This document shows, one piece after another, positions 5,202 to 60,524 of a stretch of DNA of 64,000 bases (the stretch's first letter is position 1; the number at the start of each line of letters is the position of its first letter). A program made the translations under genes and the position numbers. The notes beneath the pieces are model-generated. The model searched no databases. It was not told where the DNA came from and saw nothing but the letters and a program-made list of their open reading frames with translations. Source of the stretch: Paracyclopina nana (Eukaryota; Arthropoda; Copepoda; Cyclopoida; Cyclopettidae). The stretch lies in contig JAGUCH010000004.1 of NCBI GenBank assembly GCA_019096065.1, positions 4,898,001-4,962,000 on the forward strand, in the 5' to 3' direction.

Positions 5202-5207
5202 AATAAA
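5202..5207 (+). promoter_or_regulatory. ASPH polyadenylation signal AATAAA
   Basis: AATAAA 127 nt past the ASPH stop codon and only 3 nt before the stop end (5210) of the opposing TKFC coding sequence. Cleavage would normally fall inside the TKFC coding exon, so the two transcripts probably overlap tail to tail. Confidence 0.6.
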
Positions 5208-5209
5208 AA

Positions 5210-7637: not shown

Positions 7638-8117
7638 ATGATTTCGCTGCCGATGACATCATGGCTGGTTTTATTTTTGCTTACGTTTACTGTTGAGACT
7701 ACTCTGACCGCCGAGTCGAACGGACTTGGCGACAATATCAATTGGGTTGACTTCGAGGCAGCCGTAGCTGACGCAAGCAAGCCGTCCATGGTAATCTTGC
7801 ACAAGACTTGGTGTCCAGCCTGCAAAAGCCTGAAGCCTAAGCTCGCCGAATCATTCGAATTTGAGAAACTTAGCTCTCGGTTTTCCATGGTCAACGCCAA
7901 CGAAGAAGATCCTATTCACGAGTTGGACATATTCAACGTTGACGGTTCATACATCCCTCGCATTTTCTTCCTTAATCAAAAGGGTGAAGTTCTGGCTGAC
8001 ATACAAAACAAGAAGGGGAATCCCAACTACAAGTTCTACTATTTCAACGCCGAGTCCGTCATTGAGTCTATGCACGAAGCCTTGAACTCTTTGGGGGACT
8101 CTAAAGACGAGCTTTAA
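7638..8117 (+). CDS. TXNDC12: ER thioredoxin-domain protein, TXNDC12/ERp18-like
   Basis: A single-exon gene of 159 residues. An N-terminal signal peptide (about residues 1–26) leads to a thioredoxin fold with the active site KTWCPACKSLKPK (Cys about 59 and 62). A cis-Pro loop SYIPRIFFL (about 105) follows, and the C-terminal SKDEL is an ER retrieval signal. Length and the motifs NPNYKFYYFNAE and MVNANEEDP match the ERp18/AGR family. The CxxC shows it is redox-competent, unlike vertebrate AGR2/3 (CxxS); the family usually has CGAC, here CPAC. It acts in disulfide formation in the ER lumen. Its stop is only 14 nt from the ATG of the next gene, so it is probably the first cistron of a polycistronic unit. 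Confidence 0.92.
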   Translation: MISLPMTSWLVLFLLTFTVETTLTAESNGLGDNINWVDFEAAVADASKPSMVILHKTWCPACKSLKPKLAESFEFEKLSSRFSMVNANEEDPIHELDIFNVDGSYIPRIFFLNQKGEVLADIQNKKGNPNYKFYYFNAESVIESMHEALNSLGDSKDEL

Positions 8118-8131
8118 CCATATACATAGCT
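8118..8131 (+). promoter_or_regulatory. 14-nt intercistronic spacer with possible trans-splice acceptor
   Basis: Between the TAA of the TXNDC12-like gene and the ATG of the kinase are only 14 nt, containing an AG (in CATAG) 2 nt before the ATG. There is no room for a separate promoter or a conventional 3' end. Spliced-leader addition at this AG would free the second cistron; this is inference. Confidence 0.4.
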
Positions 8132-9592: not shown

Positions 9593-9644
9593 CTTTTCCA
9601 ATGTCTTTTATTGCATTCAATATAAATCTAAAGCGGATTTTATT
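9593..9644 (+). promoter_or_regulatory. 52-nt intercistronic spacer
   Basis: Short AT-rich spacer between the kinase stop and the NTPDase ATG. It contains AATATAAA-like sequence (near 9,620) followed by an AG (in TAAAG) shortly before the ATG, the order expected for coupled polyadenylation and trans-splicing. Function is inferred. Confidence 0.35.
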
Positions 9645-32200: not shown

Positions 32201-34694
32201 GTTGAATTTTCTGCTTCATTGCATTTTTTGTTGTCGAACAAATGTACAAATACAACCACGTGGATGCGATGTCTTTCCGTTTCCTTAGCTTAAGCTCCAC
32301 GTGCACAGGGCTACGCCATCTGGACTGAAGAAAGTAAACAAAACGTAGTGTTGGTAAAAGTCCTTTAGTGATTAGAAACCTCGTTATATTTCTTCTCCAA
32401 GAAAACGTATGTAATTTGGTAAACACTACCTTGCTTGCTTTGCGTTGATAACATGTTAGCGTTTGAGGTTTTTAAGCTTCTCGAGATTTGATGCTAGAGA
32501 TGCAAAGGAGCCAATTTCTAGCTGCTTTTGCAACAACTGCTTAAGTGCTTTCTCCGCCAAAAGCTACTGTAGCACTATAGTAGCAGTTGGCATCTAATCT
32601 CAAAGACAAAAGCTTTGTCACTAATTCCATGTCTCTTTGGGAAGAAGGCGAGCAAAAAGTCCTCAATCTCAAATGGAGGACACTTGAAAAATCTTCATCT
32701 ATGGCTGCGTGGCCCTGAGGTTCCCTTTTGTTTGCTCTCTTTTAATAAAAGTGGAGAAGACACAAAGCTATCTAGTTTCTTTTATTACTGTTTGTTTTTA
32801 TCCCAACTTTTTGACAATTTTGCGCGCGAGTCACTAACCGCAATTGGAACAAATTAAAAATGTGAAATCGCTTCCCTATAGAAATTAGCGTTCGCCATAG
32901 AATGCTTCAGTCCTCAAAGTTCTGCTTTAGCTTTCGCACGAGGAGGAGCTGGAATGCACACAAAGTTTCCATATTATACCTTTACAACACACTTTGGACC
33001 CATGATGGCTGCTGGCTCCTTCAGCACATTGGAATTTTTGCACACTGTGCCCATTATTATAGCGTCGTAGCCCGAAGCTTTCACATTTTTTGATTTATGC
33101 GAAAAGTGAGTCATCACATGAGAAAGGCCTCTACTATTGACATTCTGAGGCTTGAGAGCTCAAGAGCGGATATAGATGCTAAAATCTATAGGAATGGAGC
33201 CAAAAGTTTTGCCAAGAAAACAATTTAAATCGGAAGCGTCTGTGTCGAGAATCCGTGGGATTAGCTCCCAAAATGCATCATGGTTGAGTACAGCAGCTAT
33301 AGAAGTAGCCGTGGAAGTAAATATTGCACAACCTGCCAAGCAATATAAAAGTTCCGGCTAAAAGACGACGAAGAGCCAAGAGCAGTGCACACAAAGAGAG
33401 GGAAGAATGGCCTAGGGAAAGGTCAGATAAGTTCAAGATATGAGCATAAATACAGATTCCGCTGACATAGCACTAGCCTAGCTTCCTCGTTTCCTAGTGC
33501 TGCACACTAAATGTACTCATGCAAGACTTTCAACTTTTGGCCATCTGGTGGCAGTGAAACACACCTCAGCCGCGAATTAGAAATTCAGGTCGCCATGCTG
33601 TATGGTAGCCAACTGTAGTATATAGGCTAGGCTGCGTGGAAGGTCGGGGAAACAAATTTTCGAGGCAAGTTTAGGTGACATCCACGTGCGCGCGCGAGCA
33701 GTATGTAGAACACATGGTACCCAGCCAAGCAAGCATGGCAAAAGAATTGTTTGTGGCCCAGCAGAGTAGTAGCACACATGCAGCACTATTATTATCTCCA
33801 CTGCAGTCAGTTTTTATCATCATCCAGAGCCTAGTCGCTTCAGAGGACCAATTAGGAGAGTGAAAGCTGTTCCACCACCAACCCACCGTAGCATTATACT
33901 ACTAGTATGAAAGGCAATCGCTTTTATGTGTGTACCAGGAAGCCTTTCTGTTTTTCTGGTTACACCCTTCCAACCCAGGTTTTCATTAGCAGCAATTGCA
34001 TTAGGGGCTCCTCCCCAAATAACAACTGTTGTGCCTCGTTCTCAAAAAAATTCACGAAAAGCCTCCTTCTGCTGCTGCTGCAAGCTATGATGAAACTTCT
34101 TCTTCTTCTTCCCTGCTGGGCCCATCTTAGCTATATACTCTATGCAGCTAAGAACCTCTTTTTCTCTTCAAGGACAGACAGCTGCACAGAGGGGCTATCC
34201 TGGGGCAAAAACAGCTGCTGTGATCAAGATGTGTCAATTGGGCTTAATGGATGAATTTTTAAGCATGCTTTCACTATATACTATGGGGGAAGGCTGGTTT
34301 TTTGCAAACTTTTAAAAAGGCTTCCCATTTGTGAGGTAGAAAGGAGCTTCTGCTGCTGTGGAGCTGCATGCGCGGAGAGAGAAAGACATTAAAGTTTGGG
34401 GAGCTCCTGAGACCTGCATGTATAATCAAACAGATTGCAACCCACGACGACTTCAGCCGTAGAAGAGCTCCTAATTGAGGCCGTTTTTGGCGGCAAAAAA
34501 TGATGATGATGGAAGGGCAAATGATCCTGGGAAATTTTTTCTCTAGGCCATTTCCGCTTCACAAGTAAGCACATACACACAGTGAATGTCCAAAGTGCTT
34601 CAGGAACGAAGAAGACATTCCTTTTACGACTTCCACTTCAATCTGCGAAAGCTAGGCCCAGCTTAAATTGAAGAATAAGGAATTCCACATATTG
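29259..34694. other. Non-coding interval upstream of the DUF704x-like exons
   Basis: About 5.4 kb, probably a 5' intron or the promoter side of the DUF704x-like gene because its signal-peptide exon must lie further 5'. No exon could be supported. Short triplet runs occur (for example CTG and CTT repeats near 34,065–34,110). Confidence 0.45.
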
Positions 34695-34710
34695 CCCCAC
34701 AAATATTTTT
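34695..34710 (+). repeat. Left terminal inverted repeat
   Basis: CCCCACAAATATTTTT, exact complement of 43566–43581. Preceded by TG at 34693–34694. Confidence 0.7.
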
Positions 34711-34743
34711 TTCGGCTCGATCGATGAAAACATGATCAGAATC

Positions 34744-34986
34744 TCGTCAGAAATCTCGGCTGGATCTGATGCTTTTTCGTCAGCTATGGCGCAAACCTGA
34801 CGCCTCTTTTTAAGAAATCTGACGATGGACCTTGAGGATTTCGTTACTTTTCTTTTCAGGTTCTTGCAATAAGCTGATGTCAAAATTGAAGGGAAACTGA
34901 CGGCTGAATCACCTGGATTAGCGCTTCTTTGCTTGTTGTAACGAGAATCTCATTGATACCGATTAGAATTGGACGGAAACCTGACG
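34744..34986 (+). repeat. Left subterminal motif cluster (AACCTGACG)
   Basis: AACCTGACG occurs at 34794–34802 and 34978–34986, with close variants at 34817–34824 (ATCTGACG) and 34895–34902 (AACTGACG). Complement-oriented CGTCAG copies lie near 34,745 and 34,778. Such dense subterminal repeats are binding sites for element-encoded proteins in plant CACTA elements; here that role is inferred. Confidence 0.55.
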
Positions 34987-35215
34987 ACGATATGAATGAA
35001 AAACTGACTCTCCCAAAAATAGTCATATTTATTATTACTATTAGCTGAGACGGCTGAGCAGTACATAAGCTGCGACCGTATAATTTCCATGATTTTTCAT
35101 TGTTGTTTGATCTGGAGGAGGATAATGAACATTATGCATCTACAAGTGGATAATGATCATTACACCTCACTAGATCCTTGCGCCACCTATTTTATTTGAA
35201 TCAACGAAAAAAAGG

Positions 35216-35285
35216 AAGGAGGCAGCAAGAATCGAACCCAGGGCACCCAGCTAGCACGCCGATGCCCTACCACTGAGCCATTAAT
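35216..35285 (-). repeat. tRNA-like sequence (probable SINE head or tRNA pseudogene)
   Basis: On the minus strand, TGGCTCAGTGG (35270–35280) matches the Pol III A box and GGTTCGATTC (35229–35238) the B box, at normal tRNA spacing. A run of seven T follows within about 20 nt downstream, like a Pol III terminator. The T-arm pairs poorly and no acceptor stem is convincing, so a functional tRNA is unlikely. Confidence 0.6.
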
Positions 35286-35602
35286 TCAATTGTGAAAAAA
35301 TTGCGTAGGAGCTGGGTCAAATAGCTACTGCAGTAGCAGTAGCAGTAAGCTGGCGACTACCGACTAGCAAGCGCTGCAACAACATGGCCGAACAGGCCGG
35401 CGCGGCATAGTGGCAAGACGCAATGGCAACAGGCGCACTTTGACGGCTAGACCGCTGGGTCAGCTTTGATGAGCTCACGCTCGCTATCTGGAATAAAGCG
35501 AATCGCAAAATTTAAGGCATATATTGCAAAAATCAAGCCTAAAAACTTTCCTAAATTCAATTTTAGCCAATGCTTGAAATGTTGGGGGCCAGCTAATAGT
35601 AA

Positions 35603-35752
35603 TAGGATTATACACCTCTAGGCTGTCGGATAACACTCATTATTTTTTAGTATCTCGTGCCAATCACTCGTTCGCTCCGCTCACTCGTGATCTGTCACTT
35701 GATACTAAAAAATAATTCGTGTTATCCTCCAGCCTAGAGGTGTATAATCCTA
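35603..35752. repeat. 150-bp near-perfect palindrome (hairpin MITE-like)
   Basis: TAGGATTATACACCTCTAGG at the left is the exact complement of the right edge. Pairing continues through GGATAACAC and ATTATTTTTTAGTATC with a central CACTCGTTCGCTCCGCTCAC region. TAA on both sides could be a 3-bp target duplication as in PIF/Harbinger MITEs. It may be a separate small insertion inside the larger transposon. Confidence 0.75.
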
Positions 35753-35898
35753 TAATAGCGGCCTTTATGGCCTTCGATTGATGCATCGCAATATCACATT
35801 TGTTAATTTTCTAAAGACTATGTACATATTTTTATTTTCTTGTGCAAATGCATCTTTTCCTTCTCTTCTCTTGAGTCTTCACCATGTCCTGTTGCAAC

Positions 35899-38880
35899 CT
35901 ACTCGTCAGAAGAAGACGTGAAGTCACCAGGGGCCCTTTTGGTTGCCTTCCCTGCTGAGGTGCTTGGTTCCACCTAAAAAAAAAGATATTGATAGGTAAG
36001 ATTTCAGGTTTGTAACTCGTGAGATAATGGACTAACAGGAGGGTTAATGAGTGAAGGACGAGGGCTCTTCAACTTCTTGGCGGGTTGGAATTCATCTTCG
36101 CTGTCAGGTTCAGGCGTCCTTTTCTTCGATCCAACACTTTTCTCCTGAAATAGCAATGAAAATGTGAAATGAGTTGCAAAGCACACATTACTAGAGCTAT
36201 CATTGAACAGTTTACCTTGTCGTCGTCATCACTGTCTGTGAGGATGTCCTTTTGAAGCGACCGAACAACTGACTGCTTCTTGCTAGAAGCTGATGCTTTC
36301 CTGCTGGTCTTGGCAGCCTTGACAGGACTTTGGCTTTGACTATTGCCGAGGAACACTTCAGGCTGATAGGAGACACCCTCGGATGAGTACTCGACTAGGA
36401 GATCGTTGATGTTGTCACCAATTTCTTGGCAAACGTCGGCATACAATTCAGGAAGCTGCAAACAACAAGAGGATACATGTTTGCTCAAAAAGTTTCTCAT
36501 GATATATTACCTCGGGAACGTTGACCAGAAGGTCAAATTCGAGGTTTCTGAAATTCATGTTGAAGCAGTAAGCTGCGGCGCAGATCCTCTTCAAAACTTC
36601 CTTGATTTGTAGCTCCTCTTTGACGCACGTCTTCTTCATCTCATCGAAAATGTGATCCTTCTCCACTTGGTACAGCTTCTTGAAGTTGCCGCTGTTTTGC
36701 TGGGTCTTGGCAGTTACAAACTGGCTTCTCTCGAGAAGATAACGCACGTGTTCAGCAAAGGTGGGGATCTTCATGTTCTTTTTCAGCTGATGCTTATTCA
36801 GCTCATAGAAGTGGTAGTCCTCATCAGCAGTCGCGATAGCAGCCTCGGCGACGGTGTCACATGAGTCAACAGCCAATTGCAAGAACTTGGAACGATCGGT
36901 GCTGAATGCAGTGGTGCATGTCTGACGCATGTCTGTGATGTGACTGCGATGAACCATTGCAGCAAGGCTGAAGAGCTCTTCAATAGCTTGAACGAGGTAC
37001 TTGTCGACCATGTTATGCATTCCATCAGGAAGCGCCCTCTTGCAGAACATCAAATTTTTGGTTGAGCTATGCATACAATTATCATGAGAACCTATCATCA
37101 CTTTAAGCAATTACCACTTACTTTTCACCCTTGCCATAAATAAGATGAGCACGCGCAAGTGGCGTGAAAAAAGACATGGCGCACGTCTTGGCCAGCGTGA
37201 AGTTGATCCCCGAAAATTGCATTTTGTGCAGGTAAGGCACAAGGAAAGCACACATCTGCTCTTGCACGAAAGGAGATGAGAAGAACACGTCACAGGCTTT
37301 GCCCATATAATTGAAGGGAATCAATCGCAAAAGGATGTATCTCCCTCTGGAGCTGGTCTGGATGTGCATGGTCAATGACTTTTTGGGAGAGTTTCTCGCC
37401 ACTTGCTCAGTCACCCCGACCAGCCGGTCCTTCATTCCCTTCATGTCCCTTTTAATATCCTAATTGAAAACATATTACCTAATCATGCTCCATCATGTCT
37501 TAAATTTCAGCTGCGTGGAACTTACCAACACATTGGCGAACTTGTTATCCAACTTCTTGTCAATCTTCTTGTTCATTTCCTCAACTACCTTGTGTTTATC
37601 CTCGTTATCTTGCAAGATCACACGCTGGCTCTCGGTGACCAGATCGTGGATTCGCTCGAACAGCTCGTTAAGAGCTTTTTGCAGTTGAGGTTTGGTAACA
37701 AAGGTGCTGGGATCAGTGTTCCCGAAATCCTGCATAAATAGTATTTGATGTAACAATATGGATGTGTGAGGTTTGGATTGCAAAAACTAATCAATAAATG
37801 AATGTCATACACTCACCAGAATCATGCCTTCGCTTGCTACAAATCCTTGACCGCTAGTCACATTCATTGGGTTGAAGGAGTAGTTGAGTACATCAGATGA
37901 TGCCTCAGCAGTGGCATCACGGCTTCCCGAGGGTTTGGCGATGAACGTGTCAGATGTGGCCGACGTTACTCCTGAAGGCTCTCCTGCAGTGACATAGACA
38001 GACGAAGGGATATCATGAATTTGTGCCTCGCTGATGTCAAGGATGCCTTGATTGAGCAAGTCAAATGTCATGCTCTCCTGAGAACCTGTTGGTGTCTCAG
38101 CAACAGGAGTTTGTTCCCTTGGAGTAGTCGCTGCGGACGTGGCAGTGGTAGCCGGAGAGGAGGTGGCAGTGGAAAGGGGAGCGTCAGCGCCAGTGGCAGT
38201 GGGAGCTGAATTGGCATCTTTTTCAGCCAGCAGTCGTGCAACTTCCCGAGCTGACTGATCGGCAATTTCTTGGGCCTTCTTCAATCTTGGCCGCAGTGAC
38301 CGCTGGGTCGGTTCCGTTAGGTTGACATCAGACTGATCATCAGTGAGCGCAGTTTTTGAAGGATCAATATTTCGTCCGCTTCTCGTGCCAACCTTCCATG
38401 GACGAAAAAGGAACTCGCCGGTTTCCTTATCGCGTCGCTCGTAGATGAAGTCCTTGGACATTCGCTCAAACCATTCGTAGGTCATCTTGTTCTTGTAAAG
38501 CTCAAAGCGTTCCTCGGATCGCACATACGCCAACTCATTATTGAGCTCCTTGAGCGCGGCATCCAACCGGAATTGTTCCAGCCCTGAAATCGACGAGAAT
38601 CATAGGAATCTTATTATTAGGTCATGAGAAAATTACCTTTCTCGACTCTACAGAAGTAGTAGTACTTCCTGACTCTGCCATCGACCTTGATCGTAACAGG
38701 ATTTGACCAACGTTGGTCGCCGATCTTCTTATAGACGTTAATTTTCGGCGCCATCACCTGAGAAAATGTGTCTGGGCCGTCCACGACCATTTCGAGAGGG
38801 AAGAATTGGAAGGGCTCAGCCTCTTGTAGGCAGCAAACAATGCCGCGATCGTATTCCGTCTTGGATTTACCCTTTTCCAT
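35899..38880 (-). CDS. Orphan second gene of the transposon, 843 residues
   Basis: Eight minus-strand exons join in frame: 38880–38637, 38583–37817, 37729–37526, 37459–37122, 37066–36511, 36455–36216, 36144–36037, 35973–35899. Introns are 53–87 nt with GT–AG ends. Start is the ATG at 38880 (MEKGKSK); stop TAG at 35899. Visible parts: an N-terminal globular region, then a Ser/Thr/Ala/Pro-rich linker (exon 2). A charged coiled-coil segment spans exons 3–4 (around EEMNKKIDKKLDNK). A larger helical domain with scattered Cys and His follows in exons 4–5. The tail is basic and acidic (TDSDDDDK, KKRTPEPDSEDEF), suggesting a nuclear location. I recognise no family. It starts 405 bp from the transposase start in the opposite direction, so it is probably the element's accessory protein, by analogy with TnpA of plant CACTA elements (inference). 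Confidence 0.7.
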
Positions 38881-39285
38881 CTTCAAATAATTTGGAATCG
38901 TCTTTTCTGCTAGGAATTTTTTGACCTATGGCAATTTCGCAACTTTTTTAATTCAAATTTAATATTTTTGGCGATCATTGAAATTCTTACTGCTTTTCGT
39001 TTGGTTCTCGTCAAAACCTAACGTCAAATATGACAATCAAAAGCGGCGGTTATTCTCAGTTTCTACTCAGCGAGATGATGAAATAGCGTCAGATTTCTTA
39101 ACAATTTTCACCAATTTATGACAAGAAACGCCCGTAAATTATAACGATTACATTTTCAAGCGCAAACTGTTTTTTGAATCTCAGCTTCCATTTTCAGCAT
39201 TCGTTATTACGACGCAGTTTCAAAACGATCGCTGCAATTTCAATTTTGAATTTTGAGCAAGTTCTCTACGACAAGGAGGCGAAAA
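38881..39285. promoter_or_regulatory. Bidirectional promoter interval of the transposon
   Basis: 405 bp between the two divergent start codons. It includes AACCTAACGTC near 39,018, a relative of the subterminal AACCTGACG motif, which could allow autoregulation by an element-encoded DNA-binding protein. No TATA box is obvious. Confidence 0.45.
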
Positions 39286-42046
39286 ATGGCCGGCAAACGC
39301 AAAAAGCCGAAGACGAAAGCGTCGTTAGAAAAAATGACAAGGAATCGGACTCATCGCATGTTGAAACTCATTCAACATCAGTTGGAAAATGTTAAGGAAA
39401 CGATCGGCGAGGAAACCACACATCTTAATGAGTTATTGCGCGATCATGGCGATACGTAAGTTTAAATATCATACGCTATTGACAGTCAATGCAGCTATAA
39501 CTTTCTCCAGGCAAACTATGGATCCTGTAGTCAATTTGCGACGACAAGAGGAGGAGATTGAATCTGTCCAAGGAAAAATTACGCAGGCCATTGAGTCTCT
39601 TGCGCTTGCCTCGTCAAGTGACAGTGATGAAGTGCCAAACAAGCGCAAAGCGTCATCTTCTCCAAGCTCAGTTGCCATGTTCTCTGCCGACAGTGATGAG
39701 AACCCGGACGCACATCCAATTCATCGTCGAAGAGCTGCAGTACTCGTCCGAATTCAAAAATTGCGAAACGGCAAAACGCAAATGTCCCGTCCTGCGGAAC
39801 CAACTTATTTGGAGGCATCTACTTCATTTGGAGCGTGTTCTCGCCATGCCAGCAACGTTGACAATTTAGATGGCTACGAGTCGTCTGTGAGCGTTGTACC
39901 TGAAACAGAGGGATTTGTAATTGACGGGGAACTGCTGATTGATGGTCACCGGCCAAAAATCAAGATTGGCGACGATGAAGAGCAATCATCTGGTGACCCA
40001 AGTGAATACGACTACAACCAAGCCACAGAAAAGTCTTCATCTTCTGGCGAGGAGACGGCGATAGAAGAGGATTACGACAGCCAAGAATTGAAGCGTCAAG
40101 GAAAAGATCGTCCAGATGAGCCTGAGTCCGATACGTCTGATGGCTCAGCTGTTGTTGATCACACCTCAGAAGCTGCTGGGCATTTTGGTTTGAACTATAA
40201 GTCGTTCAAGGCGCACGCTAATAAGACGAGGAAATTGCCAAACGCTGAGAAGAATCAAGCCTTCTTTGATGTCTTCGACATGATTGCAATTAAAACGTGT
40301 GTGTCTGACGAGGCTACCAAAATGTTTTATGATCTATTCAGAGCACAGACAGAGATGAAGGATCGCAAAATGCCAAACTTCATGAAGTACAAGTTCAAGG
40401 CTGAGTCGGAGCAGCCAAAGATGACAATACATTACGAGATCTTGGACTTGGCAACTAAAGAAGTCATCAAAATTGAAGGTGCCATTAAGTACCCGCAGAA
40501 GGAATACCCTAGAAAGGATTTCATGAAGATTTCTGAGTATGGCCATGTCAACTTGTACGAGTTATGGCTATATGCCAAAAAGTGCCATCGTCACTGCCCT
40601 GGATATCATCAGTCTAGGACCCTAATCTTGTTCATGGACGGTTTGCCATTGTCTCATTCAGGCAACGAGAAGCTCAACATGGTCCAGATCGTGATTCCCC
40701 CATGCCAGACAGTCTACACGCTCGGGATGCATATCTACCGCCCACAAAGCCAGTTGGATGCCAACAAAATTATGGCCATGCTCATCAAGGAATTCCAAGA
40801 TGCTGGCCTAGTTATCGGCCGAGTCGTAGGGGATGCACCAGTACGGGCAGAATTGACTGGACTTAAGCTGCACAGTGGAACCTTCAGCTGTACTTATTGC
40901 TTTGCCGAAGGTGAAAACTTCAATCACCGACAGGTTTTTCACCCTGACTCGCGATATGCTGAAGAACGAACGGACGATTGGTTCAAGGAGACTGCGCGCA
41001 ACCTTGAGGCTGATGGAATTCAAGCGTTCGATCGGAAATCCCTTGCCGGGCTGCAAGTTGCAACCCCTCTCGCACTTCTTGATGGCTTCAGATTGCCACG
41101 AGATATAGGCTTAGAGCCCATGCACAATCTATCTGGTTGTTGCAAGCAATTGTTCAAACTTATGCTTGGATTCAATGGCAAGGCAAAGTCGCGTAAGCTG
41201 TCTGCTGTTCAAGAAGCCATTGTTGGTAGATTTGATCACCGTTGGCAAGTCATGAGCATCCCACGAGAATTTAATCGTAGAGCTCGCGGAATGAAGGACA
41301 ACTATGCTCACTACAAGTCTCAAGAGATAATGTCGATTACTGTTTGCGGCGTCTTTGCCTTTGGCGAAGCTTTCCGAGGCGACTTCTACAAAGGCTTCGT
41401 AGGCACGTGGTACACGTACTCATTCATCGTTCATGCCTCGCTCTTTGATGACGAGATGTACATGTTCATTGATGCCAAGTGCAACCTCCTTGAAATGGCC
41501 GGGATTTTCTACGACATGTTCTACGAAAACTTTGGCTTGGTCAACTGTTCATGGAACATTCACACGTTCTACCATTTGTACAAAGCTCGTCAGATCTCCC
41601 GACTGCCTCATCTCAGTTCACTGAAGTTCGAGAGTGATCTCAGCACTGTGAAAAGGAACCTTAAGCCTGGCACTCGATCAATCCCAAAGCAGGTCATCAG
41701 GAAAATGTTTCGCCGAAACAATGCTAGTCACAACTGCGACAACCGTGTGACCTTCAATTCCGTGCCGATCTCAAGATACTGTGACGACATTGTATATACA
41801 AAGGATCGAAAATTCTTCAAAGTCATTCACATCTCGGGAGAACACTATGTGGGCCACGCTTATGAAACGAAGCCATTTGAAACCCCTGAAGCGCCGCATT
41901 GCAAATGGTGGGCCATTGGTGTGTTCATCTGCCTCAAACTCGATACGAAGGAGGAGCACCTGATTGCCAAGAAAAACTGCATCGGCAAAGGGTGTCTTGA
42001 TGGGAAATACATCATTTCCATCCCATTTGACACATTTTTCACCTAA
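39286..42046 (+). CDS. Tnp2/CACTA-like transposase
   Basis: Two exons (39286–39455 and 39511–42046; 55-nt intron) encode 901 residues. The start ATG (MAGKRKKPKTK) opens a basic segment, followed by an acidic Ser/Glu/Asp-rich region to about residue 270. The core then shows LILFMDGLPLSHSG (Asp about 433) and VVGDAPVRAELTGLKLHSG (Asp about 497). Next come TFSCTYCFAEG with a CxxC (about 515) and GLEPMHNLSGC (about 591–601). This order (DG, D-x-PA, G, CxxC, MHN) matches Transposase_21/Tnp2 domains of CACTA/EnSpm elements, in which the Asp residues are part of the catalytic triad. NCSWNIHTFYHL (about 732) and a C-terminal region with KWWAIGVFICLKL follow. It lies between the terminal inverted repeats of the 8.9-kb element with no frame breaks. 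The exact clade is uncertain. Confidence 0.75.
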
Positions 42047-42374
42047 TTATGGCAAGAAAAGAAGCTGGACAAAGTATCTTATGTGATTTAAAACTCGTGA
42101 TTGCTGCCATTATCAAAAGTGATGGCACACCTTGATTATTAATAACCTGAAAGTGGTCGATGAATCGTAATTAACAAAATAATTAACAAAACTATGTTGT
42201 CACGCTATGGTCAGATAATAAAGACAATTCTTAGGTGAAACTCTTATAGATATTTTGTGCAAAAACAATTCCGATGGGTCGTCATTTATTTCATCTCTTG
42301 CATCTTCATAATGATCAATTCTGGCTAAGACTGGATACCCAGCCAACAAATCTAAAAAATTCGATGTATTAATA

Positions 42375-43255
42375 CTGTTTTTAGGCTTTTTGCAGCCAGC
42401 ATTTTTGACAGCTTGTTCACAGTTTACCTTTTAAGAGCCTCAATTTTTGTTGACGAGTTTGCTTTGGATGTTATTCTAATAGTCGTGAAATGGTAGATCA
42501 AACATTGCTTCAGCAGGCATTATATTTCGAAAACAGTCAATATATATTTTATGAAAACTTTGGTTTTCATAAATAAAACCTTTGATGATAAAAAAATGTG
42601 GTGCTTTTATGCTGTTTTTAGGCTTTTTGTAGCCGGCATTTTTGACAGCTTGTCCACAGTTTACCTTTTAAGAGCCTCAATTTTTGTTGACGAGTTTGCT
42701 GTGGATGTTATTCTACTTTTCGTGAAAATGGCGGATCAAAAGTTGCTTAAGCTGGCATTATATTTCGCAAACAGTCAATATATATTTTATGAAAACTGTG
42801 GTTTTCATAAATAAAACCTTTGATGATAAAAAAATGTGGTGCTTTTATGCTGTTTTTAGGCCTTTTGTAGCCGGCACTTTTGGCAGCTTGTCCACAGTTT
42901 ACCTTTTGTGAGCCTCAATTTTTGTTGACGAGTTTGCTGTGGATGTTATTCTACTTTTCGTGAAAATGGCGGATCAAAAGTTGCTTAAGCTGGCATTATA
43001 TTTCGCAAATAGTCAATATATTTTTTATGAAAACTGTGGTTTTCATAAATAAAACCTTAGATGATTAAAAAATGTGATGCATTTATGCTGTTTTTAGGCC
43101 TTTTGTAGCCGGCACTTTTGGCAGCTTGTCCACAGTTTACCTTTTGTGAGCCTCAATTTTTGTTGACGCATTTGATGATTTGGATGTTATTCTACTTTTC
43201 GTGAAAATGGAGGATCAAAAGTTGCTTAAGCTGGCATTATATTTCGAATACAGTC
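42375..43255 (+). repeat. 238-bp tandem repeat array, about 3.7 copies
   Basis: Units begin at about 42,375, 42,612, 42,850 and 43,088 (periods 237, 238, 238). Shared blocks include CTGTTTTTAGGC, CCACAGTTTACCTTTT and AGCCTCAATTTTTGTTGACG. The first unit is the most diverged; the last is truncated near 43,255. It sits between the transposase stop and the right terminus. Confidence 0.9.
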
Positions 43256-43581
43256 AGTGTGAGCCTATTCCATTTTGAAAGACTCGCCATGACTCTGTTT
43301 TAAGATTTGTTGCCGAAAACCTAAGATTGAAATTATAAAATTTTCTCATGAGAACCTAACGATATATCAACAAGATTTCATCATTTTTCTAGATTTTATA
43401 TGACGAAAAATTCTCGCGAGAACCTGAGGTTCATTCTGACGAAAATATTATCGTCAAAATGATCTCGCAAGATCCTAAGACACATTTTCAACCGGTTTTC
43501 GTCACTTTTCTTAAATGACGAAAACCTGACATAGTGTTCATGAGATCCAGACATAGAAAATTCCCAAAAATATTTGTGGGG
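43256..43581 (+). repeat. Right subterminal region and terminal inverted repeat
   Basis: AACCTAACG (about 43,353), AACCTGAGG (about 43,421), TCTGACGAAAA (about 43,435) and AAAACCTGACA (about 43,521) repeat the AACCTGACG theme of the left end. The perfect 16-bp terminal repeat occupies 43566–43581 and is followed by TG. Confidence 0.6.
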
Positions 43582-46500
43582 TGTGCTCGCGTCGGCAAAT
43601 ACCGCAGGTAATTTAGAATTAGAGGATGTGTCGTAGTTTGGTACACGTTGCGACATGTAGCAGCCCTTTTAAGGCCCGCGCCATTCTTGTTGTGCATAAA
43701 GTACAACCGAAGCCATACGCGCTTACTGCTGCAAAATTGGTGCAAAATTCCTGGTGCGGAAACTGCAACCTTTTTGAGGTCAACTTCAACTTGTTCAATC
43801 TTGGCTGTGAGCTGTTGTTGCCCTTAAAAACATTTGCTGCAGGAGAATCATTCTGTGGCGCAGGAGAAGCAGTAATTATTTGGCTGCAGCCATATTTTGA
43901 AAAAAGGGCTTTTTCTCCTTCTTCGTCTGAGATGAACAACAAAAGCTCTCTCTTATGGCTCCTGTCAAAACGACTGCTATCCACCCGAGGAGCATACATG
44001 ACAAGGCCAAGCAGCCATTAGTTATATATAGCTAGAGAAAAACAAGCTGACTGCCAACTCCACAACTATTTTGAGTGTGACATTGATGGAGCGGCTCAAG
44101 AGGCCAAATCATGATCAATTCTACTACGTTATCTCATTAATGGGACACATCATTATTCCCTTAAAGAGGGCTTCTCAAGAGCCCTAAATTCATTGCCCGC
44201 TCATTTGCATATATTTAAAGCTGTTTCTCTCATTCATTCCTTGCGTTATTTTGCAGCATTAGATTGATTACATTTCCTTTGCAGCAAATTGTTTGGACCT
44301 CATAATTTCATTTTTAGAAAGAATATTGGAGCTGGCACTATTTTCTTTTGAGCTGAGGTTTTTTGTTTCAGCTGTTTTTTCTCATCTCGGCAAATAATGG
44401 GCTTAAGGGCGCCATCTGGCGGTGGAAATACACAGAGGAGGAAAAAATATATCCAGATGCACTTTTTGCATCTTTATGACTCTGGCTATACGGCCCTAAA
44501 TGCGAAATGTTTGCAGCAGCATATGTACCAAACAAATACCATGGCATTGAAAAGAAACTTTGAGAGTGTCCAATGTGTGGCTTATGGCAGCTCGCATCCA
44601 AATGGTCGAACTTTTTTCAGCTCCACTAACTTCGAGCTGGGCTCTTTTTCGCCCAAATGGACAAGCTATCTATTGGACGTCATATCTTTGGCTTCATTGG
44701 CGACTGATGAAAAAAGCCTAATCAACCATTTTTTTGCCAATAATCGCGATATTTGCAGCAAGCTGTACACATGAAATATGGGGGAGATATGGTCAGCTAA
44801 ATCACAGGCTCTTGATGTGGCAGCAAAATGCCATTTTTTATTGGCATCAAACGGCTCGCTCCTGGCCATCAAATGTGTCCAATTGCCCATGACCTCGCTC
44901 ATTCCCAATTCTGGGGCCCAATAAACGGTTGTAGTATCATGTACAAGGGAAAAGGCCCTTTATCTTCCATATCAGCTTTCTCTTTCATGTAGCAATGATT
45001 TTGGGGGATTTTTGAGAGAATTAGCTTTATGCAATGCAGCATAAGGGACTTGATTTATGGGACACTTTGAACAACAAGCCGAGGCAGTTCTGCGGCGGTC
45101 AGTAGTGCGTGTATGCGAGCAGTAATCTTATTTGTGAAAAGGCCAAACCATACATAGGGGCTCGTCTTTTTTGTGCTCAGCAGCAGCATACTACACTTCA
45201 CAGCCATATTCATGAACCTTGAAGACCTACGAAGATATGGCGACCGAAAACAACTCCTAGGCATAGTATCCTTTTTTCTCTTTGTTTTTGCTCGCTCTTG
45301 GGAAAAGAAAAAAGTGTAAGCCATCCTACTATGCATATACCTATAATAATTGCCAAAGATGTGCCTTCTCTTGCAAGCCATAAAAATACATAGGAGAACA
45401 ATACACTCTTGGAATATTGTATTTTGGTGAAATATGAATACGCCACCACACTCCCTTCTTTTATGGCCAAATTATGTGGGCTGTACTTGTCCTAATAGTC
45501 TGCCATGCCTCGAATTGCAAATGAGACGATTCAAGCTGCAAACTTTCCCAGGGCGACGAACTTGGCCCACTAACGGAGCATGTATATCATGTGAAATGCC
45601 TGGACATCATATGTATAAAGTAGCATGCCATTTTCTCGGGCTGAATAATAAAGCTCGCCATTTTTTGCCCCGGGCTGTAGCTTCTGTTTTATGACAATTG
45701 CGGCTGGAATTCGGCGGACTTTTTTTTCATTACTTGCGCGTTGGAAAATGCACGTTATTGCTGTTGTAGTTGCGCTGTATGAGAATGGCATGAAATGCGC
45801 AATTCCCTCAAGCTCGATCCTCATAACTTGCTCGGTTTGGTGTAAAAGTTGCAACACAAGCTGCTGTTGTTGTTCTATTTTGCGTGCAGTTTCGCCTCAT
45901 CATGCGAAGCAATCATAAAACACTTGTGCCTTTTAATATTCACAGTCTTTCTCCTCTTTGCAGTAAATATGACCTAGTCTATGAAATCATCTGGAAAATA
46001 GGGAAAATCTCCTCAGAGTTATAAGTGTAGGCAACCTCATGAGAATCCGGAAGGAGAGGACAGAATTTTGGAGAAATATGAGAGATAGCAGCTAGCTTTC
46101 TTGTGGATATGATCTCACAGCTGGAATGCTAAAACGGGTGCCTCCATCTTCATTTCTAAGCTCTCACGCATTTTTCTCTTCTGCTACGTACTGCTGCCCT
46201 ATTTTAACTTTTTTTAAATAAGGGCCGATTCAATTACCTTACCAAGGTCTCTTTCGCCCCTTTTCTGCAGTATCCCACACATTCTATGTAGCGTACCAGT
46301 GTCTCAATTAGATTACCCATGCATCAAGTTTTTGCTGTCAACTTTTGGTCTTGAAAGGAAAAAATACAAGGGCAAGGCAAAAAGTTACGGTTCATGCACA
46401 GGCAGCTTGTAAAGCTAGGCCCAAAATGGAATTTTGGCGCTCCGGTAAAAAACGATGAGAATAGAATCTCACCTAAAAAATAACAATAGATGGTGTATAT

Positions 46501-55295: not shown

Positions 55296-56192
55296 ATGGC
55301 TGATAGTGAGGACGAATATTTTGAGGAAGAATATTACGAAGAGGCTTCATCGGAAGGCACAATTCAAGCTACTGCTCCACCACAAGACGATACTACAGAA
55401 ACCTCCGCATTTTCCCAACAATTTCTGTTCAATATGGCTCAGCGTAATATCAAGGCAATTGACGTACCCGAATTTAGTGGGGACCCGGCAGTTGACAAGC
55501 TGCAAGCACGAGCATGGGCTAGAAGGATCGACGATTTACGAGCCCTTGCCAACGACAACATACCAGCTGGACAGCCGCAACGGTGGACGGACGAAATGAC
55601 GGCCATGTATGCTGCCATGGCACTCAAAGCCAAGGCAGCACAATGGTATAACACCCTAAAGGAAGAGGGTTTTGCTCCTAAAAAGTGGAGTGGAGTATCT
55701 GGTCTGAAGAAGGAGTTCCTGGATCATTGGCACCATGAGGCCACTTTAGCCGAACAGTCCGCAATCGAGGACAGCCTGGTGCAGGAGGCATCAGAATCCG
55801 TGCGGGATTTCTATGACCGTGTAAAAACTGGAGTCATGACCCTAATGGAAACTTTCATCGTCCTTGGTGAGGGCGAGTACGCCACAAATGACGCTGCCAT
55901 AGAAATGTGCAAGAGGAGCGCATATGTGTTCGCATGCCGGCGAAAGTTCATTCAAGGTCTGTTACCTGCCATCAAGAAGCAGGTGATCGTGCATGACATC
56001 ACGGACCTTAAGGAAATCTTTAAGGTGGCTAAGCGTGTAGAGGCCTCATTGTCAAGTGAAAAGAAAGCCACCGTACCAGTCCCTGAAGTCCATGCTGTGG
56101 AGCAAGCCGACAGTGCTCAGGAGAGCAATCCTCACGACCAGCCTCTGACACTAGGAGCACTTGTGAATCTCATCAATGGCAATGGAGCGTGA
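55296..56192 (+). CDS. Retrotransposon gag, terminated by in-frame TGA
   Basis: 298 residues from ATG 55296. An acidic N-terminus (EDEYFEEEYYEE) precedes a capsid-like region with the pattern of gypsy gag (AMALKAKAAQWYNTL, LKKEFLDHW, ESVRDFYDRVK, FIQGLLPAIKKQVIV). The frame ends at TGA 56190–56192, just before an Arg/Gly/Gln repeat and a CCHC zinc knuckle that stay open in the same frame to 56450. The stop therefore removes the nucleocapsid part unless it is read through. It makes the structural particle of the element. Confidence 0.85.
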   Translation: MADSEDEYFEEEYYEEASSEGTIQATAPPQDDTTETSAFSQQFLFNMAQRNIKAIDVPEFSGDPAVDKLQARAWARRIDDLRALANDNIPAGQPQRWTDEMTAMYAAMALKAKAAQWYNTLKEEGFAPKKWSGVSGLKKEFLDHWHHEATLAEQSAIEDSLVQEASESVRDFYDRVKTGVMTLMETFIVLGEGEYATNDAAIEMCKRSAYVFACRRKFIQGLLPAIKKQVIVHDITDLKEIFKVAKRVEASLSSEKKATVPVPEVHAVEQADSAQESNPHDQPLTLGALVNLINGNGA

Positions 56193-56450
56193 GGACAGGA
56201 CCGAGGACAAGTGCGAGGACAAGCCCGAGGACAAGTGCGGGGTCCAGCAAGTGGACAGTTCCGAGCCAACGTGGTCTGCTGGTATTGCACCAAGAAGAAT
56301 CATATTGAGGCTGAGTGCTTTTCCAGGCAGGCAGATGCTGCTAAGGGCATGTACAACCCAAGGCCTGGCAGTAAGAGAGCAACAGAGCAAGAGGCAAAGA
56401 AGGTCAATGAAGTTCGTGCCTCCTACCATTCCAACCCTTTAAACTGGTAA
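56193..56450 (+). pseudogene. Nucleocapsid (CCHC) part of gag beyond the stop
   Basis: Same frame as gag. A GQ/R-rich repeat precedes CWYCTKKNHIEAEC, a CX2CX4HX4C zinc knuckle that binds element RNA. It ends at TAA near 56,448–56,450. Separated from the capsid part only by the TGA at 56190. Confidence 0.8.
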
Positions 56451-56548
56451 ACGACCAGGGTGGGCTCCGCACCACTGGTCGTCGCAAGGTCGTTGAACTT
56501 TTTCACGCAATCACAAGTTTCAGCCTGCTATCCTCGAATGAGAATACC

Positions 56549-56839
56549 AAACGACCTTTTGTATCAATCCACAGCCTTGGAGCCACCTTTGAAATGTTGT
56601 TTGACACTGGCTCCAATATTTCCCTGTTATCGCGTATGGCATTCAGGAGAATTGCCCCCCAACTAAGACCTCAGAGAATTACAAATGCTCCGATGTTACG
56701 TGCAACATGTGCTTCCGGAAACCCTTTAAGGATCAATGGACTTTATGAAATAGACTGTATGATAGAAGGCCGACAGTTGAAGTGGCCATTTTATGTGTGC
56801 GAGGACTCGCACTTGATGGGATCGTGGGTATTGACCTGA
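56549..56839 (+). pseudogene. Retroviral-type aspartic protease, 5' part
   Basis: A different frame from gag encodes LFDTGSNISLLSR, the DTG active site, then a beta-rich region to WPFYVCED. The flap/second half (LALDGIVGIDLI) continues in the next frame from about 56,804, so the protease domain is split by a one-base frame change. The 5' limit is approximate. This enzyme would cleave the gag-pol polyprotein. Confidence 0.75.
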
Positions 56840-59202
56840 TCCATGCTACCGGCTTGTTTTATGATCCCATATCGATGGAGATCCGCTCTGCAAATAAGAT
56901 ACAACTTGAGGCGAGAACTCAGAAGAAGACGTACATACCGGCCAGAAGTGTTGCTACAATCTCTGTGCAGCTAAAGAACCAGGACAATGCGCCAATAGGC
57001 CACTTTGAAGGATGTCTCCAAATAAGCGATGCCGCCCAGCTTTGCAAGGAAGATTGCCTCATCCGCTCTAATCAACAAGGAATCGCTAATATTAAGGTTA
57101 CAAATGCAGGATTATTGCCTATTGAGTTAGACAAGGGTTCTTTTGTGGGGCAAATTTTCAGTGTTGATAAGATTGTCCCTGTTCATGATGTGTTCTTAAA
57201 TGATAAAAATGTTTTGGGGAGGCCTTCTAGGCAGGTGGAGGACTATATTCTAAAGCATGCAAATCTTAATCATCTTCCTCCTAATTTACGTCAGAGTTAC
57301 TTGAAGTGTCTACTTCGTAATTCTGACGTTATTTCCACTTCAGAATTTGACTTGGGTGATTGCACCCTGATGAAACACAAAATTGACCTACATGACCACC
57401 GACCAGTTCATGCCAGACAATTCCAGATTCCCATGTCACATCTTGATGAAATCAACAAAAGCATTGAAGAATGGCTTAAGATGGGCATTGTGGAACCCTG
57501 CGATTCTCCCTGGAACTCAAGTATTTTCTGTGTGCCGAAGAAACTGCCCGATGGGGGTACTGGTTGGAGACCAGTGGTGGATTATAGAGGCCTAAATGCA
57601 AAAACAGAGCCCTCTAGCTACAGACTCCCTCTTATTTCTGAATGTTTGGATGACATAGGATCATCAGGTACCCGTTTGTTTTCGCAGCTTGATCTTCGAC
57701 ACGGATTTCACCAAATGCAATTGGCACCATCTTCAAGACCCTACACAGCTTTCACTATACCTGGAAAGGGCCAATACAGCTATATTCGGGCACCCTTTGG
57801 CTTAACAGGGATGCCACTTACCTTTCAACGAATGATGATGTGTGCTTTCCAAGGTCTGACGCCTTCCCGTGTATTGATATACCTGGATGATGTGCTTGTC
57901 AAGGGTAGTGGGCATGAAGACATGTTAGTGGGCCTTGAAGAATGTTTTGCGAGACTTCGGAAGGCCAACCTAAAGTTGAATTTACCCAAATGTAGTTTTG
58001 GAACAGAATCTTGCACTTACTTGGGTTTCACGTTGACCCCTGAGGGCTACAAGCCAAATCGAAGGAAATTGGATGCTATATCGAATGTGAAGCCACCCTC
58101 TAATGTCAAAGAAATCAGGCAATTTCTGGGTCTAACTAACTTTTTCAGAGCGTGTATTCCTCAATTTAGCAGACATTCAAAGGAATTGTCTCGTCTTACT
58201 TGTAAGGACAGTGGATGGAAGGGCGGCCCTCTTCCTCCAAAAGCAATGAAATCTTTTGAGATTCTGAAGAAGATGCTATGTATGGAACCTGTGCTAGCCT
58301 ATCCCAAACCCGGCCTAGATTTTCATCTCTATGTTGATGCCTCTCAAGGTGCTGTTGATGCCGATGATGGAGGCCTTGGAGCAGTACTTATCCAATATCA
58401 AGATAATAGTCCACGAGTAATTGGTTATGCCTCAAGAGGTCTTCAGAAGCATGAGAAGAACTACACTCCGTATTTGTTAGAACTGCTAGCCTGCACATGG
58501 GCAATTGATCACTTTGCAGTTTATTTAACTGGTAACCCATTTACGTTATACACTGACCATAAGCCATTAGAGAAGTTGAACAAGACACATTCCAGAACAT
58601 TGAACCGCTTGCAGCAACAGATGTTAGAACACAATTTTACGATGCAGTATTGTCCAGGAGCAGAGAACCCTGCTGATTATTGTTCGAGGAATATTCCTGA
58701 ACTTTTGCGAGGTGGTGAAACCCACAGTGTCGCTATTGAGGCCATGGAGGACATGGCAGCTATGAAGAAGCTACAATCTACAGATTTGGTAGTTGCGGCC
58801 TTACTTTCCTTTGTCAAACAAGGACTTGTACCCAGACAACCTGAGTTGAAGCGAATTATTAGAAGATACGGCCCTATTTGTGAAGTCAAGAATGACTTGT
58901 TGTTTGTGAAGAGTGGGCCTTTGGACAAGTCAGTGTTGGCAGCACCGGCTGTTTGTCATGCTGACATTATAAGTGCTGCGCATGCCGCCGTTGGGCACAA
59001 GGGCATCTACAAAACCAGTGAAAGAATTCGCGAGCAGTATTTTTGGCCTAGTTTACTGGCTGATGTTGAGGAATACATCAGTTCATGTTGGAAATGTGAC
59101 AGAACCAAACCTAAGCAATCACAGCCAAATGTGGAATTGCTGCCCCACCAGCAACCAAAGGGCCCCTGGAGCGGGTCCATGCTGACCTCTTTGGACCTTT
59201 GA
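56782..59202 (+). CDS. Pol: protease C-part, reverse transcriptase, RNase H, integrase zinc finger
   Basis: A long frame of about 800 residues. It starts within the protease (DGIVGIDL), then the RT palm with QLDLRHGFHQM, APFGLTGMP and the catalytic YLDDVLVKG. Next is the RNase H region with FHLYVDAS, LELLACTWAI and LYTDHKPLEKLN (D, E, D). The integrase HHCC finger (HAAVGHKGIY… SCWKCDRTK) follows. The frame stops at 59200–59202, and the integrase core continues in another frame from about 59,165. The apparent one-base loss lies in a G/C-rich run near 59,160–59,170. Copies element RNA to DNA. Confidence 0.9.
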   Translation: MAILCVRGLALDGIVGIDLIHATGLFYDPISMEIRSANKIQLEARTQKKTYIPARSVATISVQLKNQDNAPIGHFEGCLQISDAAQLCKEDCLIRSNQQGIANIKVTNAGLLPIELDKGSFVGQIFSVDKIVPVHDVFLNDKNVLGRPSRQVEDYILKHANLNHLPPNLRQSYLKCLLRNSDVISTSEFDLGDCTLMKHKIDLHDHRPVHARQFQIPMSHLDEINKSIEEWLKMGIVEPCDSPWNSSIFCVPKKLPDGGTGWRPVVDYRGLNAKTEPSSYRLPLISECLDDIGSSGTRLFSQLDLRHGFHQMQLAPSSRPYTAFTIPGKGQYSYIRAPFGLTGMPLTFQRMMMCAFQGLTPSRVLIYLDDVLVKGSGHEDMLVGLEECFARLRKANLKLNLPKCSFGTESCTYLGFTLTPEGYKPNRRKLDAISNVKPPSNVKEIRQFLGLTNFFRACIPQFSRHSKELSRLTCKDSGWKGGPLPPKAMKSFEILKKMLCMEPVLAYPKPGLDFHLYVDASQGAVDADDGGLGAVLIQYQDNSPRVIGYASRGLQKHEKNYTPYLLELLACTWAIDHFAVYLTGNPFTLYTDHKPLEKLNKTHSRTLNRLQQQMLEHNFTMQYCPGAENPADYCSRNIPELLRGGETHSVAIEAMEDMAAMKKLQSTDLVVAALLSFVKQGLVPRQPELKRIIRRYGPICEVKNDLLFVKSGPLDKSVLAAPAVCHADIISAAHAAVGHKGIYKTSERIREQYFWPSLLADVEEYISSCWKCDRTKPKQSQPNVELLPHQQPKGPWSGSMLTSLDL

Positions 59203-60524
59203 GGGATTCAGATGGAAAGAAGTATATTTTGGTTATCACTGATTCTTTTAGCAAGTATGCAGAGTTTGTTGCTCTGGAGAACAAACAACCTGACACTGTT
59301 GCTGGGGCCATTTTTAATCGATGGATTGCAAGATTCGGCTCGCCAGCTGTGCTCATTACCGATGGAGGGGCAGAATTCACATCAAAGTTGAGTCAATCGC
59401 TTTATGATCTGCTCCAGATAGACAAGCGCAAAACCAGCCCTAGCCACCCTCAGTGCAATGCGGCTGCTGAAGTTATTAATAAGCACATTATAAGTTACTT
59501 GCAGAAGATGCTTGATACATCTTCTCCTTTGGAATGGGAACCCCTTCTCCCTGCGCTTCAACTCTCCTATAACTGTGGTGTGAGTAAGGCAACGAAAATG
59601 AGTCCGTTTTTCCTCCTTTTTGGCGTGCATCCCAGAACACCATTAATGGATCCAAATCTGGTTGACAAAACCTATTATGGGGAAGACTACATCAGTGAAA
59701 TCGCTAGACGGATGAAGATTGCCCGTCAAGTTGCTATGGAAAGCAACATATCTTATCGTGACTCATACAAGCAGCTCTATGATGCCAAGATCAAGCCAGA
59801 AGACTTTAGAGAAGGGTTATTGGTTTGGTTGGATCGTCCGAATCTTCTGAAAATCAATCCAAAAATTCGATCAAGGTGGGAGGGACCTTATGTTATTGTG
59901 AGTCTCCAGGACACAAATGCTTTGATTCAACATCTTTCCACTAGCAAATCCAGATATGTTCATTTAAACAGATTACGTGTCTGTAAATCTACTCCTTCTA
60001 AGCCACTGGCTCAAGCAACAAATGACTTACCAGAGACCCTGCCTGAAACTTCATCTTCCAGAGATCCTGCCCATCCAGACACAGGCTCAAAAGGAGGCTA
60101 CATAACAATTGAAGATGATGACGTTATCATCATGAATCCGCAAGACCCTCCACCAGCACCCATTCCTTTCAAATCAGAGGAACCAGCTGCCAGTATTGCC
60201 TCTCCGATGACGACAACACCTCCACCTATTAAGCAAGAACCGAACTCTCCACCTGCGGAGGAGGTACTCATTCATGACGATGTGCATGAACCCCATGCAC
60301 CCACTGAAGATGATGAACCACCAGACTTACCATCAAGAAGTAACCCTGGCTCTCCTAGGAAACTACTCAACCGTTTCCGTGACAGCTTCCGAGGGGGACG
60401 AGACCCCACAAGCTCATTGACACGCAATCAGGCTAGAGCTCAACGAGTTTTGATAGAAGACCAGCCTTTACCAGCCAGGGCGCCAGAATACAAGCCTGGC
60501 CGGGGGCGACCTAAGAAAAAATGA
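59199..60524 (+). CDS. Pol: integrase catalytic core, GPY/F module and disordered tail
   Basis: About 441 residues, in frame with the integrase core start near 59,165. The catalytic triad is visible: Asp in ITDSFSKYAE, Asp in ITDGGAEF and Glu in AAAEVINKH. The GPY/F module appears as KIRSRWEGPYVIV. A disordered acidic/proline-rich tail of about 180 residues has ITIEDDDVIIMN (SUMO-interaction-like), IKQEPNSP (SUMO-acceptor-like consensus) and ends PGRGRPKKK, an AT-hook-like motif. The core inserts element DNA; the tail may tether it to chromatin (inference). No chromodomain was seen. Confidence 0.88.
   Translation: MRDSDGKKYILVITDSFSKYAEFVALENKQPDTVAGAIFNRWIARFGSPAVLITDGGAEFTSKLSQSLYDLLQIDKRKTSPSHPQCNAAAEVINKHIISYLQKMLDTSSPLEWEPLLPALQLSYNCGVSKATKMSPFFLLFGVHPRTPLMDPNLVDKTYYGEDYISEIARRMKIARQVAMESNISYRDSYKQLYDAKIKPEDFREGLLVWLDRPNLLKINPKIRSRWEGPYVIVSLQDTNALIQHLSTSKSRYVHLNRLRVCKSTPSKPLAQATNDLPETLPETSSSRDPAHPDTGSKGGYITIEDDDVIIMNPQDPPPAPIPFKSEEPAASIASPMTTTPPPIKQEPNSPPAEEVLIHDDVHEPHAPTEDDEPPDLPSRSNPGSPRKLLNRFRDSFRGGRDPTSSLTRNQARAQRVLIEDQPLPARAPEYKPGRGRPKKK

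What the first reader, a model, noticed from the sequence alone, without database searches (positions are those of the whole stretch)
34695..43581. Previously unnamed-looking two-gene CACTA-like transposon in an animal
A perfect 16-bp terminal inverted repeat encloses a spliced Tnp2-like transposase and a divergent eight-exon gene, both with intact frames, plus subterminal motifs at both ends. The two-gene layout parallels plant Spm (TnpD/TnpA), but the gene order here is divergent and the second protein is not recognisable. The start CCCCAC is not the classical CACTA terminus.
Basis: partly seen in the sequence, partly recalled or inferred. Interest (0 to 1): 0.88.

Follow-up and report, generated by a model that had tools for sequence, protein, structure and literature searches.

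The report
Two-gene CACTA-type transposon in an arthropod
This is a recently mobile cut-and-paste jumping gene, one of a large family in a small-genome arthropod, that carries a distant CACTA-type transposase plus a second gene of unknown kind that is kept beside nearly every related transposase found in that genome.

Summary
Confirmed and extended. Window 34695-43581 (8,887 bp) is a complete DNA transposon: a perfect 16-bp terminal inverted repeat (TIR), a spliced 901-aa transposase and a divergent eight-exon 843-aa gene 2, both open. A 99.4% identical copy with the same TIRs lies on another contig. Both ends were resolved in 26 of 31 relatives examined; [quoted passage not shown] Two of eight insertions tested have empty-site paralogs. 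The transposase keeps every diagnostic CMC (CACTA-Mirage-Chapaev) residue (D, D, CxxC, HxxxH, E), though Pfam and PDB sequence searches miss it. CCC termini with 2-bp TSDs are the published marks of animal TRC elements (SmTRC1, 2006), so the kind is not unnamed; some sister families here begin CCC+CACTA. The striking part is gene 2: 85 of 91 related transposases found in this genome have it upstream, all 85 divergently transcribed, down to about 30% transposase identity, while no relative was found in the libraries searched. Its likeliest role is a TnpA-like partner binding subterminal TGACGAAA repeats; that is inferred. Verdict: new variant of a known kind.

The parts
34693..34694 (.). left copy of the 2-bp target-site duplication, TG
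34695..34710 (+). left terminal inverted repeat CCCCACAAATATTTTT
34711..35010 (.). left subterminal region with one TGACGAAA site (34775) and TGACG/AAACCTGA motifs
35037..35753 (.). nested insertion of about 710 bp, absent from the 99.4% identical copy on C7
35899..38880 (-). gene 2, 843 aa; exons 38637-38880, 37817-38583, 37526-37729, 37122-37459, 36511-37066, 36216-36455, 36037-36144, 35899-35973
   Evidence: predicted join; conservation
38881..39285 (.). 405 bp between the two start codons, presumably a two-way promoter (inferred)
   Evidence: sequence; gene models
39286..42046 (+). transposase, 901 aa; exons 39286-39455 and 39511-42046
   Evidence: relatives
42375..43256 (.). 238-bp tandem repeat, 3.7 copies, 3' of the transposase
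43266..43565 (.). right subterminal region with four TGACGAAA sites (43401, 43437, 43497, 43516)
43566..43581 (-). right terminal inverted repeat
43582..43583 (.). right copy of the 2-bp target-site duplication, TG

Best explanation
A complete, recently mobile cut-and-paste transposon of the CMC (CACTA/EnSpm-Mirage-Chapaev) superfamily, in a TRC-like animal branch with 5'-CCC..GGG-3' ends. Shown from sequence: exact ends, 2-bp target-site duplication, empty sites for two relatives, the CMC catalytic and zinc-motif residues, and a divergent partner gene conserved across the family. Inferred: the DDE transposase cuts at the CCC/GGG ends and inserts with a 2-bp stagger; the gene 2 protein is a partner needed for transposition, most likely TnpA-like, binding the subterminal TGACGAAA-type repeats to bring the ends together and perhaps regulating the shared promoter. 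My odds: mobile CMC element 0.97; gene 2 a transposition partner 0.75; specifically a TnpA-like end-binding protein 0.5.
For: Second full copy with the same TIRs, 99.4% identical over 7.5 kb. 2-bp TSD in 26 of 26 elements with both ends resolved, of 31 examined; mismatched-pair control 70 of 600. Empty sites for 2 of 8 joined flanks searched. D376, D441, CxxC 460/463, HxxxH 684/688 and E707 conserved in 18 of 18. Homology to P0001, BLASTP 2e-14. Gene 2 upstream and divergent for 85 of 91 transposases, downstream control 4 of 91. dN 0.12-0.33 with dS not computable, taken as saturated, for both genes. TGACGAAA clustering.
Against: No Pfam or PDB sequence match for the transposase; no structure could be predicted. 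In all but the seven breakpoint pairs the ends were searched for with patterns that require CCC/GGG, so 'all start CCC' is partly built in. TGACGAAA is clear in the window, C2 and L013 elements but not in all ten elements inspected. Nothing shows that gene 2 protein binds DNA or is needed. Five examined elements have unresolved ends.
Confidence: 0.8

Rival explanations
1. An ordinary TRC/EnSpm element whose second gene is a standard component already catalogued (for instance in Repbase); nothing new beyond one more host.
For: CCC ends and 2-bp TSDs match TRC; L077 ends CCCAGCGAAC resemble Hydra CCCAGCCAAC and Aedes CCCAGTCAAC; the branch closest to P0001 also carries gene 2.
Against: The TRC paper found no conservation of its extra proteins among TRC elements; no gene 2 relative among 6195 scored candidates from 5.8 billion proteins; paper searches listed none that I recognised as reporting one. 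Repbase could not be searched.
Confidence: 0.3
2. Gene 2 is a passenger that helps the element persist (for example by countering silencing), not a part of the transposition machinery.
For: No recognisable DNA-binding domain; function untested.
Against: Same divergent position beside 85 of 91 transposases across very distant families; clustered subterminal repeats that call for an end-binding protein.
Confidence: 0.2
3. The inverted repeat is a chance match around unrelated single-copy host genes.
For: With up to 2 mismatches the TIR pattern gives 204 hits genome-wide against 65 for the control, so near matches alone prove little.
Against: Second copy with the same exact ends, TSDs, breakpoints, empty sites and many relatives.
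Confidence: 0.01

Closest known systems
TRC elements of animals (SmTRC1 of Schistosoma; Aedes and Tribolium TRCs; Hydra Spongebob/EnSpm-4N1_HM)
   Same: 5'-CCC termini, 2-bp TSD, DG and CxxC motifs; SmTRC1 also has a tandem repeat 3' of its ORF (PMC1636069, parts read; PMC4298943, passages)
   Different: Published strict motifs I and A in 0 of 18 here, but also in only 1 of 5 each of the TRC-type proteins P0001-P0005; a conserved divergent gene 2; SmTRC1's extra proteins come from alternative splicing of one unit
Sly1-1 of Neurospora crassa (fungal CMC)
   Same: CMC transposase plus an adjacent, divergently transcribed gene of unknown function, also in Chaetomium (PMC4592977, passages)
   Different: Fungal, 11.5 kb; homology of the second genes could not be tested
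Plant Spm/En (TnpD/TnpA)
   Same: Two proteins and subterminal repeats (TnpA roles as summarised in PMC1636069)
   Different: Starts CCCCAC not CACTA, 2-bp not 3-bp TSD (3 bp recalled), second gene divergent rather than alternatively spliced from one unit
Other CMCT lineages (Plavaka, ESTA, Transib, Chapaev, Mirage)
   Same: [quoted passage not shown] 2-5 bp TSDs (PMC12730594, passages)
   Different: Mostly 5'-CA..TG-3' ends (Plavaka TGT or CATCA), against CCC..GGG here

Membership tests
CMC superfamily | DDE triad with C(2)C and H(3-4)H between second D and E | tested here: met
   Invariant or pattern-matched in 18 of 18; D1-D2 65-66 aa in 17 of 18 (the L021 value was a mis-hit of the pattern) against 74-81 in P0001-P0005; D2-E 262-267 against 242-251
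CMC superfamily | 2-5 bp target-site duplication | tested here: met
   2 bp in 26 of 26 resolved, of 31 examined
TRC (animal CACTA) | TIR begins CCC | tested here: met
   7 of 7 breakpoint pairs and the window; other ends were searched with patterns that require CCC
TRC (animal CACTA) | 2-bp direct repeats flanking | tested here: met
   26 of 26 resolved
TRC (animal CACTA) | Transposase_21 domain (PF02992) | tested here: inconclusive
   No Pfam match up to E=10 for the window protein; in 18 relatives only one DUF1258 match at E=0.01 and chance matches; P0001-P0005 do not match PF02992 either
TRC (animal CACTA) | Published motif I and box A | tested here: inconclusive
   0 of 18 in the lineage, but only 1 of 5 TRC-type proteins passes each
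Plant CACTA (Spm/En) | TIR begins CACTA | tested here: not met
   CCCCACAAA in the window; CACTA at positions 4-8 in some sister families
Plant CACTA (Spm/En) | 3-bp target-site duplication (recalled) | tested here: not met
   0 of 25 extend to 3 bp
Plant CACTA (Spm/En) | TnpA homolog as second protein | not testable with these tools
   No TnpA sequence at hand; gene 2 matches no Pfam family at its cut-off
Sly (fungal CMC) | Homologous divergent second gene | not testable with these tools
   Sequence of the Sly second gene not held

The most novel reading that the evidence does not exclude
Animal CACTA-type (TRC-like) elements are in general a two-component system: the transposase and an unrecognised, spliced, divergently transcribed partner protein have co-evolved throughout the group, as TnpD and TnpA do in plants but with a partner of separate origin. 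The same divergent layout in fungal Sly1-1 would then reflect an arrangement older than animals.
Probability: 0.35. Interest if true: 0.72.

Novelty: new variant of a known kind. Interest (0 to 1): 0.55.

Why it matters
In the papers I saw, animal CACTA relatives are described by their transposase. This genome has at least 91 related transposase loci, 85 of them paired with the same partner gene, and pairs of copies 98.6-99.98% identical that mark recent movement. That makes the function of a second CACTA protein in animals directly testable and offers apparently intact elements for a transposition assay. Both genes escape Pfam, so such elements are probably under-annotated elsewhere (inference).

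Tried and rejected
Rejected: chance TIR (copies, TSDs, breakpoints, empty sites). Rejected: gene 2 confined to close relatives. With exon 5 of the window only 39 of 53 transposases were paired; profiles then found gene 2 in L077, L078 and L079, and exon 4 searches raised the count to 85 of 91.

Led nowhere: structure prediction (off), hence no fold search; Pfam for either gene; PDB sequences; protein search with the gene 2 core; contig scans: P0005 and the gene 2 core in viral contigs, the transposase alignment in prokaryote genomes; host identification by 18S rRNA (not completed). An apparent empty site of the L031 element lies in a local tandem repeat and is not counted. dN/dS could not be computed. 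Left ends of L037 and L038 were not looked for. No unresolved end was pursued further; for L078 and L079 little DNA beyond the transposase had been fetched.
Full report
WHAT IS THERE. An 8,887-bp element, 34695-43581, with a perfect 16-bp TIR, CCCCACAAATATTTTT. Its plus-strand gene has two exons (901 aa); its minus-strand gene has eight (843 aa). Both join in frame with GT..AG introns; there is no RNA evidence. The start codons are separated by 405 bp and the genes point away from each other. A 238-bp unit in 3.7 copies follows the transposase. About 710 bp at 35037-35753 is absent from the second copy.

IT IS MOBILE. The exact TIR occurs five times in the 92-Mb genome. Two pairs bracket full elements: the window and C7:3293865-3302268, 99.4% identical over 7.5 kb with different flanks. 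The fifth belongs to a C2 copy whose transposase is 76% identical. A protein search gave 58 rows; the last five are N-terminal parts of genes already listed and were dropped, leaving 53 loci, of which 50 have no stop inside the match. For seven near-identical pairs, 98.6-99.9% identical, homology ends at or within 4 bases of GTGGGG (six pairs) or GTTGGG (one pair). A further pair, L029/L030, is 99.98% identical over the whole stretch compared, flanks included, so it shows no breakpoint.

TERMINI AND TARGET SITE. I examined 31 elements (L009-L036, L077-L079; L009 is the window element). Both ends were resolved in 26 and not in 5 (L029, L030, L035, L078, L079). TIRs begin CCCCACAAA, CCCCACTAC, CCCCACCAAA, CCCAACTAC or CCCAGCGAAC. 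Apart from the breakpoint pairs and the window, ends were sought with patterns that demand CCC/GGG, so the shared CCC is partly built in; the duplications are not. All 26 have an exact 2-bp duplication: 25 and L077. None of the 25 extends to 3 bp; left and right flanks of different elements agree in 70 of 600 pairings. For L024 the left end was one of two candidates and the one with the duplication was kept. Of 8 joined flanks searched, 2 gave paralogs that span the junction: the C9 element against C8:1113032-1113190 (237 of 255 identical, no gap), and the C6 element against 13 places, two of which were read; there only about 22 bp of left flank is shared.

THE TRANSPOSASE. No Pfam family up to E=10, no PDB sequence for the protein and only chance-level matches for the profile. 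One of 18 relatives matches DUF1258 at E=0.01, below its cut-off. Among 5.8 billion proteins one match, P0001, at 3.9e-5; a profile gave P0002-P0005; each of these searches scored only the 8000 best candidates. BLASTP to P0001 is 2e-14 over about 400 residues. D376, D441, C460-x2-C463, H684-x3-H688 and E707 are conserved in the 18 aligned relatives: the DDE + C(2)C + H(3-4)H pattern given for CMC transposases (PMC12730594 and PMC4592977, passages). A tree separates 20 genome members from P0001-P0005, but its branches are long, the program warns of them, and no named CMC reference was available. P0001 finds 62 places in this genome, 38 of them new, 91 loci in all.

GENE 2. It matches no Pfam family at its cut-off, and none of 6195 candidate proteins scored. 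Exons 1-6 were found in all seven other elements whose upstream DNA was read first (exon 3 of L042 only at E=0.08); exons 7 and 8 in fewer. Combining genome searches with exon 5 and two versions of exon 4, 85 of 91 transposases have gene 2 within 7 kb upstream, 85 of 85 divergent, median distance 3.4 kb; 4 of 91 have a match downstream. The coordinate lists were typed from the listings; one search's list is cut at its end and some fragmentary rows were left out, so counts are lower bounds. The six unpaired loci were not inspected. Profiles found gene 2 in 3 of 3 distant elements read, L077, L078 and L079.

AGE AND SELECTION. Six near-identical pairs differ by 0 to 26 codons in the transposase, so movement is recent. 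Between families dN is 0.12-0.33 while dS could not be computed, which I take as saturation, for both genes: long constraint on both proteins (inference).

HOW IT PROBABLY WORKS. Inferred from CMC biology: the transposase pairs the ends, cuts at CCC/GGG and inserts with a 2-bp stagger. Five of the seven TGACGAAA sites of the window sit in the outer 190 bp of the element; of ten elements whose ends were inspected, the repeat is as clear in C2 and L013 but not in the rest. In plant Spm clustered subterminal repeats are bound by TnpA (recalled; PMC1636069 summarises TnpA as a DNA-binding regulator), so gene 2 is a natural candidate for the binding partner. No result here tests that.

KNOWN OR NEW. 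TRC elements have CCC ends and 2-bp duplications (PMC1636069: abstract, text parts 1-2 of 6, sections 9 and 10); a Hydra element too (PMC4298943, passages). L077 here begins CCCAGCGAAC, close to Hydra CCCAGCCAAC and Aedes CCCAGTCAAC. So terminus and target site are of a known kind. The strict published motifs I and A are absent from 18 of 18, but 4 of 5 TRC-type proteins also fail each, so that test is inconclusive. The TRC paper found no conservation of its extra proteins among TRC elements; Neurospora Sly1-1 has a comparable divergent gene. The searches listed no paper that I recognised as reporting a conserved second gene in animal CACTA elements; most hits were seen only as listings, and Repbase was not available.

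HOST. The genome has 80 matches to the cuticle family PF00379, by general knowledge an arthropod family, so the host is very likely an arthropod with a compact genome. The species was not identified.

Noticed in passing
window 35037-35753: About 710 bp inserted in the window copy only; contains a long inverted repeat and a tRNA-like stretch by eye (ARAGORN calls no tRNA), probably with a TA duplication.
   Followed up: partly
window 55296-60524: Open frames with gag, reverse transcriptase, RNase H and integrase domains: a retrotransposon.
   Followed up: no
L077 1872-9841 (G000:C4:3466871-3474840): A distant relative with 17-bp TIRs CCCAGCGAACCCTTTTC and an AC/AC duplication, close to published Aedes and Hydra ends.
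   Followed up: partly
genome C2:2569352, C2:2577663, C2:2585951: Three related transposases about 8.3 kb apart, each with gene 2 upstream (2564918, 2573229, 2581520): a tandem array of elements.
   Followed up: no
genome C2:1613143/1614504, C2:9299607/9300963 and others: Pairs of CACCATAAATATTTTT about 1.35 kb apart in inverted orientation, possibly another repeat family.
   Followed up: no
L029 and L030 (C1:12911841, C6:6610711): Two copies 99.98% identical across the whole 4.9 kb compared, flanks of the transposase included, with a repeat array at the 3' side; ends not found.
   Followed up: no
window 1726-10680: Host genes: aspartyl/asparaginyl beta-hydroxylase, dihydroxyacetone kinase, a kinase with MIT domains, a GDA1/CD39 nucleotidase.
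   Followed up: no
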